DNA of 64,000 bases from Mycobacterium sp. DL440 (GTDB lineage Bacteria > Actinomycetota > Actinomycetes > Mycobacteriales > Mycobacteriaceae). The translations under genes were made by a program, and so were the position numbers. Positions within the stretch are counted from its first letter, which is position 1, and each line of letters begins with the position of its first letter. The notes under the pieces were generated by a model, which worked only from the letters and a program-made list of their open reading frames with translations, was not told the DNA's origin and searched no databases. Shown here in pieces: positions 2,821-45,963 of the stretch. Location: NCBI RefSeq assembly GCF_011745145.1, contig NZ_CP050191.1, forward strand, positions 2,743,054 to 2,807,053, given 5' to 3'.

Positions 2821-4209
2821 TCAGCAGTTCCGCAAAAAGTGTTCCAGAACGCCCGCGCCGAATTGCAGCGCGTCCACCGGCACCCGCTCGTCGACACCGT
2901 GGAACAGCGCCGCGAAGTCCAGTTCGGGCGGCAGCCGCAGCGGAGCGAACCCGAAGCAGCGAATCCCCAACCGCTGGAACGACTTCGCGTCGGTCCCGCC
3001 CGACATCATGTAGGGCACGGTGCGGGCGTCGGGATCGAGTGCCAGGATCGCGGCGTTCATCGCGTCCACCAGATCACCGTCGAACGTGGTCTCGTAGGAC
3101 GGCAGATCCCGCTCCCAGCTGCGCGTCACATCGGGACCGATCAACTCGTCGACCTCGCGCTCGAAGGCCTCCTTGCGGCCCGGCAGCACCCGGCAGTCGA
3201 TCACGGCTTCCGCCGATGCGGGGATGACGTTGGCCTTGTAGCCGGCCTTGAGCATGGTCGGGTTGGCGGTGTCGCGCAGGGTGGCCGACACGATCCGGGC
3301 CACGCCGCCGAGTTTTGCGATGGTGCCGTCCAGGTCCGGCGAGGTCACGTCGAAGTCGTAGCCGGTCTCCTCGGCCACGGCGGTGAGGAACTCTTCCACT
3401 GCGGGATTGAGCACCAACGGGAACTGGTGACGGCCCAGCCGGTCGACGGCACCGGCGATGGCCGTCACGGCGTTGTCGTCATGCACCATCGAGCCGTGCC
3501 CGGCCCGGCCGCGTGCGGTCAGACGCATCCAGGCCAGTCCCTTTTCGGCGGTCTCGATCAGGTACAGCCGCCGCTCCCCGCCGTCCTTGCGCGGCACGGT
3601 CAGGGAGAACCCGCCCACCTCACCGATCGCCTCGGTCACGCCCTCGAACAGGTCTGGCCGGTTGTCCACCAGCCAGTTGGCGCCGTAGGTGCCACCGTGT
3701 TCCTCATCGGAGACGAACGCGAACACCAGGTCGCGGGGCGGGACGATGCCGGACCGCTTGAAATGCCGGGCCACCGCGATGGTCATCCCGACCATGTCCT
3801 TCATGTCCACCGCGCCGCGGCCCCAGACGTAGCCGTCCTTGACCGCACCCGAGAACGGGTGCACGCTCCAATCGGCGGGCTCGGCCGGGACGACGTCGAG
3901 GTGCCCGTGGATCATCAGGGCGCCGCGACTGGAGTCGGCACCGGGCAACCGGGCGAAGACATTGCCGCGCCCCGGCGCCCCGGCCTCGACGTATTCCGTC
4001 TCGTAGCCGACCTCGTGCAGCTGCTCGGCCACCCAGTGGGCACACTCTGCTTCAGGCTTGGTGGTGGCCGGGTCACCGGTATTGGAGGTGTCGAATCGGA
4101 TGAGCGCACTGACGAGATCGACTACCTCGTCCGCGCTGGAGGCGGGGACCGTCACAGTCCCATTGGTACCACCGATTCGGTCCGGGACGCCGGTTTGGGT
4201 CTTGGGCAC
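2821..4209 (-). CDS. M20/M25/M40 family metallopeptidase (Rv2141c-like)
   Basis: A 462-residue cytoplasmic M20-type hydrolase, the family of dinuclear zinc dipeptidases, acylases and deacetylases. The first metal-binding motif is 'HGHLDVVPA', the bridging aspartate lies in 'GRGAVDMKD', and the catalytic/metal acidic pair in 'VSDEEHGG'. The dimerisation domain sits in the middle of the protein ('GRAGHGS'), and a C-terminal metal His lies in 'LFHGVDERV'. The substrate cannot be read from sequence. The ATG at 4209 gives an N-terminus about 18 residues longer than the family core; an in-frame GTG at 4155 is a reasonable alternative start. It corresponds to Rv2141c. Confidence 0.92.
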   Translation of the reverse strand: MPKTQTGVPDRIGGTNGTVTVPASSADEVVDLVSALIRFDTSNTGDPATTKPEAECAHWVAEQLHEVGYETEYVEAGAPGRGNVFARLPGADSSRGALMIHGHLDVVPAEPADWSVHPFSGAVKDGYVWGRGAVDMKDMVGMTIAVARHFKRSGIVPPRDLVFAFVSDEEHGGTYGANWLVDNRPDLFEGVTEAIGEVGGFSLTVPRKDGGERRLYLIETAEKGLAWMRLTARGRAGHGSMVHDDNAVTAIAGAVDRLGRHQFPLVLNPAVEEFLTAVAEETGYDFDVTSPDLDGTIAKLGGVARIVSATLRDTANPTMLKAGYKANVIPASAEAVIDCRVLPGRKEAFEREVDELIGPDVTRSWERDLPSYETTFDGDLVDAMNAAILALDPDARTVPYMMSGGTDAKSFQRLGIRCFGFAPLRLPPELDFAALFHGVDERVPVDALQFGAGVLEHFLRNC

Positions 4210-42807: not shown

Positions 42808-44736
42808 TCAGGTCGCCTGCAGGGTCAAGCGCGGCCCCGGATCGGCCGACAACGGGACGTTGTGACGTTGCAGCAGCCACGAGGCGATGTTGTGGAACAG
42901 CGGCGCCGCCGAAGATCCCGGTGAGCCGTCCGCGGCGCGGTGCGGCGCGTCCATCATGATGCCGACGACATAGCGCGGATCATCGGCAGGCGCCATGCCG
43001 GCGAAGGTGATCCAGTAGACGTCGTCGTAGTAGCAGCCGCACGCCGGATTGATCTGCTGCGCCGTACCGGTCTTGCCGGCGATCTGGTAGCCCTCGACCG
43101 CGGCCTGCGGGCCAGTACCCTGCTGCGCACCCATGGGATCACGCTGCACGATGGCGCGGAACATGTTGCGTACCGTGCGGGCGGTCTCCGGTGTCACCAC
43201 CCGAACCCCTTCCGGCCGCGGCTCATCGGTCCGGGTGCCATCGGGCGCAATCGTGGACTTGATGATCCGCGGCGGCATGCGGACCCCGTCGTTGGCGATC
43301 GTCTGATACATCCCGGTCATCTGCAGCAGAGTCATCGAAAGACCCTGTCCGATAGGGAGGTTGGAGAACGAGCTACCCGACCACTGATCGATGGGCGGAA
43401 CCAGACCCGAACTCTCACCCGGTAGCCCGACGCCGGTGCGCTGACCGAGCCCGAACCGGCGGACCATGTCGTAGAACCGATCCGGACCCACACGCTGGGC
43501 CAACATCAGGGTACCGACGTTGGACGACTTCCCGAACACACCGGTCGTCGTGTACGGCATCACGCCGTGGTTCCACGCGTCGCGGACCGTGACGCCGCCC
43601 ATGTCGATCGAGCCGGGCACCTGCAGCACCTCGTCGGGATTGGCCAGACCGTACTCGATCGCGGCCGACGCCGTGATGATCTTGTTCACCGAGCCGGGCT
43701 CGAACGGTGAGGACACCGGTAGGTTGCCCATCTGCCGGCTGTCCTGCCGACCGAGGTCCTGGCTCGGGTCGAACGTGTTGTCGTTCGACATCGCCAGTAC
43801 CTCACCGGATTTCGCGTCGAGCACCACCGCCGAGACATTCTTGGCACCCGAGGCGTCCTTGGCCTGCTGCACCTGCTGCTGAACGTAGTACTGGATGTCG
43901 TCATCGAGGGTCAGCTGCACATTGGAGCCGTTGACCGCGTCGTGCCGGTTGCGGTAGCTGCCCGGGATCACCACACCGTCCGAACCCCGGTCGTAGGTGA
44001 CCGAACCGTCGGAGCCGGCCAACACCGCGTCGAGAGAATCCTCAAGTCCCAGCAAGCCGTGACCGTCCCAGTCGATGCCGCCGACGATGTTCGCGGCCAG
44101 CGATCCTCCCGGGTACTGACGCAGGTCCTGGCGCTCGGAACCGACTTCGGGGAACTTGTCCATGATGGCGCTGGCGATCGCGGGATCCACCGCGCGGGCC
44201 AGATAGACGAAAGTCTCGTTGCTTCGGAGCTTCTTGAGCACCGTCTTGGCGTCCGGCCGGTTGTCCAGCCGGGTGGCGATCTCCTTGGCAATGTCCGAGA
44301 GCCGGCGATCCGGATCCGGCGCCTCGCTGGATTTGGCCTTGGCCTCGGCGAGCTGTTTGCGGACCCGGACCGGCTGGAATGTCAGCGCTTTGGCCTCGAT
44401 GGTGAACGCCAGCTTGTCGTCATTGCGGTCGACGATGCTGCCTCGCATGGCCGGGTTCACGTCGGTGACCTTGAGCTGGCTGGCCGCCTCGGCGCGCAGC
44501 CCCGCGGCCCTGGGCACCTGGAGCGTGAACAGCTGCACTGCCGCGATCACCAACACTGCGAGCATGACCAGGTTCCCGGTGCGATGCCGGAACACGAAAG
44601 ATGAGCTGCGCAAACCTGTTTCGGTGGCGGCCACCCTGGTTCGGCGGTCCCGGGCCTCATGTCCGGGCCCCGGCGAGGCCTTCTTGGCCCGCTGCGGCTT
44701 GGGCGACTGACCCTGACGGCCCGGGCGGCGGCTCAT
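42808..44736 (-). CDS. pbpB: Penicillin-binding protein PbpB (FtsI, class B transpeptidase)
   Basis: 642 residues. A basic cytoplasmic start and one membrane helix at about 50-70 ('[16 protein letters not shown]') precede the class B N-terminal dimerisation domain. The transpeptidase domain has active-site Ser349-x-x-Lys352 ('GSVNK'), the SxN motif in 'GKSSNVGTL' and 'KTGTAQQ'. It crosslinks septal peptidoglycan with FtsW. A short loop '[14 protein letters not shown]' holds two close cysteines. The start overlaps the stop of the FtsL-like gene by 4 nt. It corresponds to Rv2163c. Confidence 0.98.
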
Positions 44737-45197
44737 ACGGCCGGCGCCTGCGCGTTGACGCCGGCAGCCGGAACATGTGCCGCGGGGGCCGCCGGTGGGC
44801 TGAATTGCTCCAGCGGAACGACGGGGCCCGGGGCGGGGGCGGCCAGCGCCTGCGCCTGCGCGGCCGGTCCCGGAGCGGCCGGTCCCGGCAGGACCGGTCC
44901 GGGCGCGGTCGGCACACCGGCGGTGGGCACGTGCGTCGGATCAGTGACCTGTTGTGGTGCGAGTTGAGCGGGATCAACCGGCGCGGGCGGCGCCAAGGGG
45001 ACCGGAGCCGGAGCCGCGAGCACGTTCGGTGCCGGCGCGGGTCCCGGCAGGACCGGCCCGGGCACCGGCGGTACGGCTCCCGGCACGCCATGGGGTGCGT
45101 CGGCCTGCGGGACCGGGATGCCCGGAACGGCAGGAGAACCCGGGCGCGGCGCCCGCACCGTCAGCTCCCGCGGATCGACCACCCGCGGGGCCGGGGG
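44733..45197 (-). CDS. FtsL-like proline-rich protein, 3' part (gene split by adapter)
   Basis: The C-terminal part, rich in Pro, Ala, Gly and Val ('GPVLPGPAAPGPAAQAQALA'), of the gene whose 5' part lies at 45284-45963. It ends 4 nt inside pbpB. The apparent start of this frame (MYNRQ...) lies in adapter sequence and is not real; genuine coding begins at about 'PPAPRVVDPRELTV'. Long Pro/Ala-rich tails are known for the mycobacterial Rv2164c family. The two parts are in different frames; removing an 85- or 88-nt insert would restore one frame, 86 would not. Some true sequence may also be missing. Confidence 0.8.
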   Translation of the reverse strand, partial: PPAPRVVDPRELTVRAPRPGSPAVPGIPVPQADAPHGVPGAVPPVPGPVLPGPAPAPNVLAAPAPVPLAPPAPVDPAQLAPQQVTDPTHVPTAGVPTAPGPVLPGPAAPGPAAQAQALAAPAPGPVVPLEQFSPPAAPAAHVPAAGVNAQAPAV

Positions 45198-45283
45198 CTG
45201 TCGATTATACACATCTCCGAGCCCACGACACTAAGCAGGACATCGTATGCCGTCGTCTGCTTGAAAAAACAAAAGAGAAACAA
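45198..45283. other. Illumina Nextera adapter sequence left in the assembly
   Basis: Read on the plus strand, 45198-45216 is the 19-base Nextera mosaic end with two mismatches (CTGTC..TTATACACATCT). Next come the CCGAGCCCACGA.AC linker, an 8-base index-like stretch at 45232-45239, and the flow-cell end A..TCGTATGCCGTC.TCTGCTTG at 45240-45263. A run of A and an A-rich tail follow to about 45283. The order and spacing match the i7-side adapter read through from an insert. This is not genomic DNA. Confidence 0.96.
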
Positions 45284-45963
45284 GCGACCGAGCCATCGGT
45301 GTTCAACGGGGGCGGCGGCACCCCTTCGGCCGGCTTGGGGGTCCCGACGACAGTCCAGTTGCCCGCTGCGTCCTGCACCAGGTGTGCGGTATCGCGCGAC
45401 GGGATCATTCCCAGATTGCGGGCAGACTCGGCCAGCGCCGGTGCGGCCTGCGCCTCGAGCACATCGCGCTCCAGCGCCTCTTTCTGTTGCAACAGACCCT
45501 GATTGACCTGGCGGGCATGGCCCAACTGGTAGGACCGCTCGGCCGAACCGGTCGACAGCCACAGCGTGACCGCAAGTCCCAGACCCAGTGCCGCGATCAC
45601 CAACACAACGAACGGCACACGGGAGACCAGGACGCGGGGGTTCAGCTCGATCGAGGCCAGCCGGACCAGCAGACGTTCCCGGAGCCGAACGCGCAGTGGC
45701 GGACGGACAACCTTGGGAGCCTTGGCTTTACGAGCCTTCGCCCGCGCTTTTGCCTGGCTGGCACTCTTGGGCCGGGCCGGCCGGGTACCCGGCCGCTGAA
45801 TCGGCCCGGCACTCGGTGCCGTACGCGCGGGTCGCTGCTCGGAACCCGGCCGGCGCTTGCGCGGCGGGGCCTGATCGGTGCGCCGCCCACCACCTCGGGC
45901 CGGTTGACGCACCGGACGCCTGCGGTCTGCCTCGCGCAGCTGTTCGGGTCGCTTGACCTTCAT
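45284..45963 (-). CDS. FtsL-like membrane protein, 5' part (Rv2164c family, gene split by adapter)
   Basis: A basic, disordered cytoplasmic N-terminus of about 120 residues ([20 protein letters not shown]). One membrane helix follows at about 125-145 ('[20 protein letters not shown]'), then a short coiled coil ('[20 protein letters not shown]') and '[14 protein letters not shown]'. This is the FtsL layout: a bitopic division protein working with FtsQ and a DivIC partner to activate FtsW-PbpB. Its ATG overlaps the rsmH stop. The reliable part ends near '[14 protein letters not shown]'; the predicted residues beyond (FSSRRRHT and after) are adapter translation. It joins the piece at 44733-45197. 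Confidence 0.85.

What the first reader, a model, noticed from the sequence alone, without database searches (positions are those of the whole stretch)
45198..45283. Illumina Nextera adapter inside the chromosome breaks a division gene
The stretch matches the i7-side Nextera adapter in order and spacing: mosaic end, linker, 8-base index, flow-cell end, then an A run, with scattered mismatches. It interrupts the FtsL-like gene between rsmH and pbpB and makes two false protein ends. Translations through it give FSSRRRHT on one frame and KQTTAYD...VGSEMCI on another, peptides I recognise as adapter hallmarks in public proteomes. The two true parts would be in one frame if 85 or 88 bases were foreign; genuine Pro/Ala-rich sequence may also have been lost.
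Basis: seen in the sequence. Interest (0 to 1): 0.9.

Follow-up and report, generated by a model that had tools for sequence, protein, structure and literature searches.

The report
Sequencing adapter assembled into bacterial chromosome
A piece of laboratory sequencing oligonucleotide was built by mistake into a mycobacterial chromosome record, where it makes an ordinary cell-division gene look broken; it is a data error, not biology, and the same record holds several more.

Summary
Window 45198-45269 matches the Nextera i7 read-through oligonucleotide without gaps at 58 of 64 fixed bases (next best place in 64 kb: 33 of 64). Mosaic end, linker, 8-base index slot and flow-cell end come in order, followed by an A-rich run-off tail. 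Two refinements: the foreign stretch is about 100 bases (45198-45297), not 86, and it stands where nearest relatives have about 36 genuine bases. In 13 of 14 nearest relatives both flanks could be placed, and the net difference is 64 bases in all 13. The same single-contig genome holds at least eight more Nextera remnants, one ending at a run of exactly 100 N. Three i5 remnants carry the exact S503 index and one i7 remnant the exact N706 index; the window's slot is nearest to N706 (6 of 8). A reversed oligonucleotide gives nothing below E 2.5. The FtsL domain lies wholly in the intact first part. Best explanation: untrimmed, poor read ends were taken as sequence during short-read assembly or gap closing. 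Nothing biological is novel. In 23 of 297 same-genus genomes the 23-base adapter piece occurs at up to 2 mismatches.

The parts
45198..45216 (+). Nextera (Tn5) mosaic end, read-through orientation, 17 of 19 bases
45217..45231 (+). Nextera i7-side linker, 14 of 15 bases
   Evidence: linker as printed in PMC6265951
45232..45239 (+). 8-base i7 index slot TAAGCAGG, nearest to N706 (TAGGCATG), 6 of 8
   Evidence: index list from PMC7589761; exact N706 copy at L177
45240..45263 (+). P7 flow-cell end, 21 of 24 bases
   Evidence: the 20-mer occurs only here in the genome at up to 3 mismatches
45264..45284 (+). A-rich run-off tail (16 A of 21), the A-richest 21-mer of the window (tied with the one starting a base earlier)
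45285..45297 (+). junk bases up to the return of homology; the 23-mer over the tail occurs nowhere else in the genome at up to 3 mismatches
45298..45963 (-). genuine N-terminal 222 codons of the FtsL-like gene (Rv2164c homologue), holding the whole FtsL domain match (residues 116-197)
44733..45197 (-). genuine C-terminal Pro/Ala-rich part of the same gene, left in another frame (mechanical ORF 44733-45212 starts inside the adapter)

Best explanation
It is an assembly artefact. A short library insert ended at about 45197, so the Illumina read ran on through the mosaic end, i7 linker, index and P7 oligonucleotide and then past the end of the molecule, where base calls turn to A and noise. The read was not trimmed. 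In relatives the missing stretch is about 36 bases at 86-89% G+C, where coverage is likely to be poor. There the assembler or gap closer took this poor read end as sequence and joined it to the next genuine stretch at 45298. The record thus gained about 100 foreign bases, lacks about 36 genuine ones, and splits one ftsL-like gene into two false proteins. Shown: oligonucleotide identity, break points, net length, sister remnants with catalogue indexes, one remnant ending at a run of exactly 100 N. Inferred: that coverage failed there, and which program made the join.
For: 58/64 ungapped match in the right order with substitutions only. A-rich tail after the flow-cell end. Breaks in homology at 45198 and 45298/45299 in the nearest relatives, net 64 bases in 13 of 13 placeable loci. 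All 119 other listed homologous proteins cover at most 88% of the 252-aa ORF, that is the 222 genuine codons (120 listed of 2147). Eight further remnants in the same 6.38-Mb contig: 730540, 2929154, 4155178, 4225056, 4460626, 5308640, 5472339, 5965507. Three of them carry exactly AGAGGATA (reverse complement of S503) and one exactly TAGGCATG (N706) (names from PMC7589761). The remnant at 5472339 runs into exactly 100 N. At 5965507, of four relatives searched, three have both flanks on one contig with 165-167 bases between them where the record has 15-17. Reversed-oligonucleotide control: 7 matches at E up to 10, best E 2.52.
Against: No raw reads were available, so depth and clipping at the site were not seen. 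The window's index slot differs from N706 at 2 of 8 bases. Unlike the remnants at 2929154 and 4225056, no opposed mosaic end is detectable in the tail here (10/19, reached by 118 of 319 control pieces), so how the right side was joined is not shown. High G+C beside the adapter is not general: in the left 100 bases of seven other sites it is 0.60-0.79, against a mean of 0.675 in the window, and only two of the seven are in the top 5%. The 100-N run is read as a scaffold gap but could in principle be a masked stretch.
Confidence: 0.99

Rival explanations
1. A real Tn5-type transposon insertion or a laboratory transposon mutant sits in the gene; the mosaic end is natural DNA.
For: The 19-base mosaic end is the Tn5 transposase recognition end (recalled), and it is present at 17/19.
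Against: A transposon does not carry the Nextera linker, an index slot and the P7 flow-cell end. No second mosaic end above chance and no room for a transposon gene lie between the flanks, which are about 36 bases short relative to relatives instead of showing a target duplication. Eight sister remnants carry i5- or i7-type parts.
Confidence: 0.002
2. The foreign bases come from a chimeric library molecule (adapter between two genomic pieces), faithfully sequenced, not from a read running off its end.
For: Opposed mosaic ends at 2929154 and 4225056 (16/19 each; control maximum 13/19 in 319 pieces) show two adapter tails meeting, which a chimera could also give.
Against: The A-rich tail after the flow-cell end is what base calling gives beyond a template (recalled), not library DNA; 6 substitutions in 64 bases suit one or few poor read ends; flanks are collinear with relatives, with only a short loss.
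Confidence: 0.02
3. The gene really is frame-shifted or truncated in this strain, and the adapter covers a genuine lesion.
For: The adapter hides the true sequence, so the strain's own state over about 36 bases is unseen.
Against: Both parts align with relatives right up to the adapter edges, and 30 of the 31 nearest listed homologues (P0002-P0032) are 370-396 aa long; the other, 297 aa, is labelled partial.
Confidence: 0.01

Closest known systems
Illumina Nextera / Nextera XT i7 adapter read-through (mosaic end, linker, i7 index, P7)
   Same: Order, spacing and 58 of 64 fixed bases, plus A run-off; arms as printed in PMC6265951 (passage)
   Different: Six substitutions and a poorly called index, as expected of a low-quality read end
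Synthetic-sequence contamination of public genome records (the class that NCBI screens with VecScreen, per a passage of PMC7218494)
   Same: Adapter DNA left in an assembly, with false protein ends as a result
   Different: Lies inside a single-contig chromosome; of 128 adapter matches in 119 stretches of other genomes, 126 lie within 100 bases of a stretch end
FtsL of Actinobacteria (NCBIfam NF053549; Rv2164c)
   Same: The N-terminal ORF scores 93.8 bits against a cut-off of 55
   Different: The record splits its Pro/Ala-rich tail off by the artefact

Membership tests
Nextera i7 read-through adapter | Mosaic end, linker, 8-base index slot and P7 end in order and without indels | tested here: met
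   58/64, no gap; next best place 33/64
Nextera i7 read-through adapter | Index slot equals a catalogue index | tested here: inconclusive
   6/8 to N706, best of the 20 i7 indexes compared (those visible in the passages of PMC7589761; some rows of its table were not shown); chance of 6 or more of 8 for one given index is 0.004; the exact N706 index is at L177 in the same genome
Nextera i7 read-through adapter | A-rich run-off after the flow-cell end | tested here: met
   16 A of 21, A-richest 21-mer of the window
Library contamination of this genome record | Other adapter remnants with one index pair | tested here: met
   Eight more places; 3 exact S503 and 1 exact N706 slot; in the other 4 the slot is noisy (5308640), cut (5472339) or absent (4225056, 5965507)
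Library contamination of this genome record | Read depth drop and clipped reads at the site | not testable with these tools
   No raw reads held
Tn5-type transposon insertion | Two opposed mosaic ends with cargo and a target-site duplication | tested here: not met
   No opposed end above chance; about 100 bases leave no room for cargo; bases lost, not duplicated
FtsL (Actinobacteria) | NF053549 score above the curated cut-off | tested here: met
   93.8 bits against 55, residues 116-197 of the N-terminal ORF

The most novel reading that the evidence does not exclude
The artefact is not random. In high-GC genomes sequenced from Nextera libraries, Pro/Ala-rich coding stretches fail, and adapter tails preferentially replace them, so the low-complexity tails of some protein families are systematically falsified in reference genomes. 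For: the missing ftsL stretch is 86-89% G+C in four relatives; the site at 5965507 lies, by eye, before a Pro/Ala-coding stretch; and another Nextera-contaminated species, G033, has that same gene split over two contigs, with an adapter 51 bases beyond the aligned right part. Against: in the left 100 bases of seven other sites G+C is 0.60-0.79 and only two are in the top 5% of window pieces, which is why I put the odds at 0.3 and not higher.
Probability: 0.3. Interest if true: 0.35.

Novelty: not a real feature. Interest (0 to 1): 0.2.

Why it matters
A single-contig genome rated 100% complete can still carry adapter joins that split conserved genes and create false proteins. The index pair left in the remnants works as a forensic barcode. 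In 23 of 297 same-genus genomes searched (this one included) the adapter piece occurs at up to 2 mismatches, against 0 for the reversed pattern. Anyone using this record to study ftsL or its Pro-rich tail would be misled.

Tried and rejected
TruSeq adapters as the source: the TruSeq i7 oligonucleotide reaches 35/64 at the site, explained by the P7 end it shares; otherwise background. Nextera i5 oligonucleotide in the window: background only, best 33/62, not at the site. A second, opposed mosaic end in the 45270-45300 tail: not above shuffles (530 of 2000 reach the score) nor above control pieces. The tail as a misplaced genomic piece: its 23-mer occurs only here at up to 3 mismatches. Pfam gave no family above its cut-off for the three ORFs tried. 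Paper searches for the adapter peptides (SSRRRHT: 0 papers) and for adapter contamination of genomes (listings only) gave the general contamination paper PMC7218494 (passages); I saw no survey of Nextera remnants in those listings. Not pursued: of the 34 rows lie above E 0.01; 6 of these repeat named sites and 20 were not read. The control gave 7 rows at E up to 10 against 9 and 25 rows, so some of the 20 may be short remnants; nine remnants is a lower bound. Species name: not fixed; the best protein hits with a name are from Mycobacterium sp. 134, M. peregrinum and relatives, with M. fortuitum close behind.

Full report
What is there. At 45198-45269 the window matches the Nextera i7 read-through oligonucleotide without a gap at 58 of 64 fixed positions: mosaic end 17/19, linker 14/15, 8-base index slot, P7 flow-cell end 21/24, six A. 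The next best place in the 64-kb window is 33/64, and 200 shuffles of the oligonucleotide reach at most 34 in the 4 kb around the site. The 21 bases after the flow-cell end hold 16 A, the highest count of any 21-mer of the window (tied with the one a base earlier), in which A is 16.8%. G+C falls to 50% over 45200-45299, against 80% over 45100-45199.

Where it ends. BLASTN of the unaltered window stretch against the same locus in relatives puts the last homologous base on the left at 45198 (45197 in one, 45194 in three of the more distant ones) and the first on the right at 45298-45301. In 13 of the 14 loci L141-L154 both flanks could be placed, and the record is 64 bases longer between them in all 13. 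L152 was dropped because its flanks did not align next to the site. In the nearest five, 99-100 bases in the window stand for 35-36 in the relative. The relatives' stretch is 86-89% G+C in the four measured. In the more distant loci L122-L140 no left flank aligned next to the site, so they do not bear on the length.

The gene. The 252-aa ORF 45205-45963 (-) has 222 genuine codons and 30 foreign ones. It scores 93.8 bits against NF053549, FtsL of Actinobacteria (cut-off 55), at residues 116-197, so the FtsL domain is whole. The second ORF, 44733-45212 (-), starts inside the adapter and holds the Pro/Ala-rich tail. Of 2147 homologous proteins found, 120 were listed. One is the window's own; the other 119 cover at most 88% of the query, that is, up to the adapter. 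Of the 31 nearest (P0002-P0032), 30 are 370-396 aa long and one, labelled partial, has 297. Named ones are from Mycobacterium or Mycolicibacterium. The name Rv2164c = FtsL is in PMC3989709 and PMC4450064 (passages).

The rest of the genome. The window lies in a genome of one 6,381,854-base contig. Pattern and BLAST searches with Nextera pieces found eight further remnants (alignments): 730540 (i7, minus strand), 2929154, 4155178, 4225056, 4460626, 5308640 and 5472339 (i5), and 5965507 (mosaic end and first linker bases). Seven of these eight reach E 0.01 or better; 5308640 was found by the mosaic-end pattern at 2 mismatches and matches the i5 oligonucleotide at 46/62. The reversed i5 oligonucleotide gives 7 matches, the best at E 2.52. 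Twenty weaker rows were not read, so nine is a lower bound.

Index forensics. At 2929154, 4155178 and 4460626 the i5 slot reads AGAGGATA exactly, the reverse complement of S503. At 730540 the i7 slot reads TAGGCATG exactly, N706 (index names from Table A2 of PMC7589761, passages; that table pairs the indexes with other arms, so only its index names are used). The window's slot TAAGCAGG is nearest to N706, 6 of 8, among the 20 indexes compared (next 5 of 8); chance for one given index is 0.004. At 5308640 the slot is noisy (4 of 8 to S503). At 5472339, 4225056 and 5965507 it is cut off or absent.

How the joins arose. At 5472339 the adapter ends and exactly 100 N begin, which I read as a scaffold gap. 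At 2929154 and 4225056 an opposed mosaic end follows (16/19 each; the best of 319 control pieces is 13/19), so two adapter-tailed ends were glued to each other; at 730540 the same is visible by eye with one extra base, though the ungapped test gives only 10/19 there. At 5965507 relatives hold 165-167 bases where the record has 15-17 (three of the four relatives; in G033 the two flanks lie on different contigs). G033 is itself contaminated (3 matches), and one of its adapters, at 5843-5865 of contig C44, lies 51 bases beyond the right part of that gene. The window site shows no opposed mosaic end, so its right junction is a noisy tail joined to genuine sequence. The common cause, inferred, is untrimmed short-insert reads whose ends were taken as sequence where coverage was weak. 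That the weak places are GC-rich fits the window site (left 100 bases 81% G+C, top 1% of window pieces) but not all others: the left 100 bases of seven other sites range from 0.60 to 0.79, two of them in the top 5%.

How common. In the genus, 23 of 297 genomes searched, this one included, have it at up to 2 mismatches, and 0 of 297 have the reversed pattern.

Verdict. It is an artefact of assembly and of no biological novelty; its value is in curation and as a clear, index-traceable example inside a single-contig chromosome.

Noticed in passing
L171/L180 (genome 5472339), outside the window: Nextera i5 remnant that ends at a run of exactly 100 N; the frame right of the gap matches positions 437-872 of 992 of the MmpL3 profile, so the single contig seems to be a scaffold with at least one gap.
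   Followed up: partly
L172 (genome 2929154-2929307), outside the window: i5 adapter tail followed by an opposed mosaic end with junk between: two adapter-tailed ends glued; a Ser/Thr-kinase-like frame lies to the right.
   Followed up: partly
L193 (genome 4225056), outside the window: Truncated i5 tail meeting an opposed mosaic end (16/19), between a frame weakly like alpha/beta hydrolases and an ABC-transporter frame.
   Followed up: partly
L173 (genome 4155178), outside the window: i5 remnant with exact S503 index inside an open frame matching an F420-dependent LLM oxidoreductase family (TIGR03621).
   Followed up: partly
L179 (genome 5308640), outside the window: Noisy i5 remnant inside an open 493-aa frame with weak MinD/ParA-like matches.
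   Followed up: partly
L176 (genome 5965507), outside the window: Mosaic-end remnant where three relatives hold about 150 more bases; it leaves an open 496-aa frame, so frame-based annotation would not flag it.
   Followed up: partly
Same-genus genomes, such as G162, G256, G247, G086, G245, G092, G150, G121, G053, G275: 23 of 297 same-genus genomes (this one included) hold the adapter piece at up to 2 mismatches; the single-contig G162 has 3 copies and G053 has 45.
   Followed up: no
L038 (contig JAOAJQ010000047.1) at 3946-3968: One of only two of 128 matches that lie more than 100 bases from a stretch end (the other is L018, 159 bases away): an adapter in the middle of a Crenarchaeota MAG contig.
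   Followed up: no
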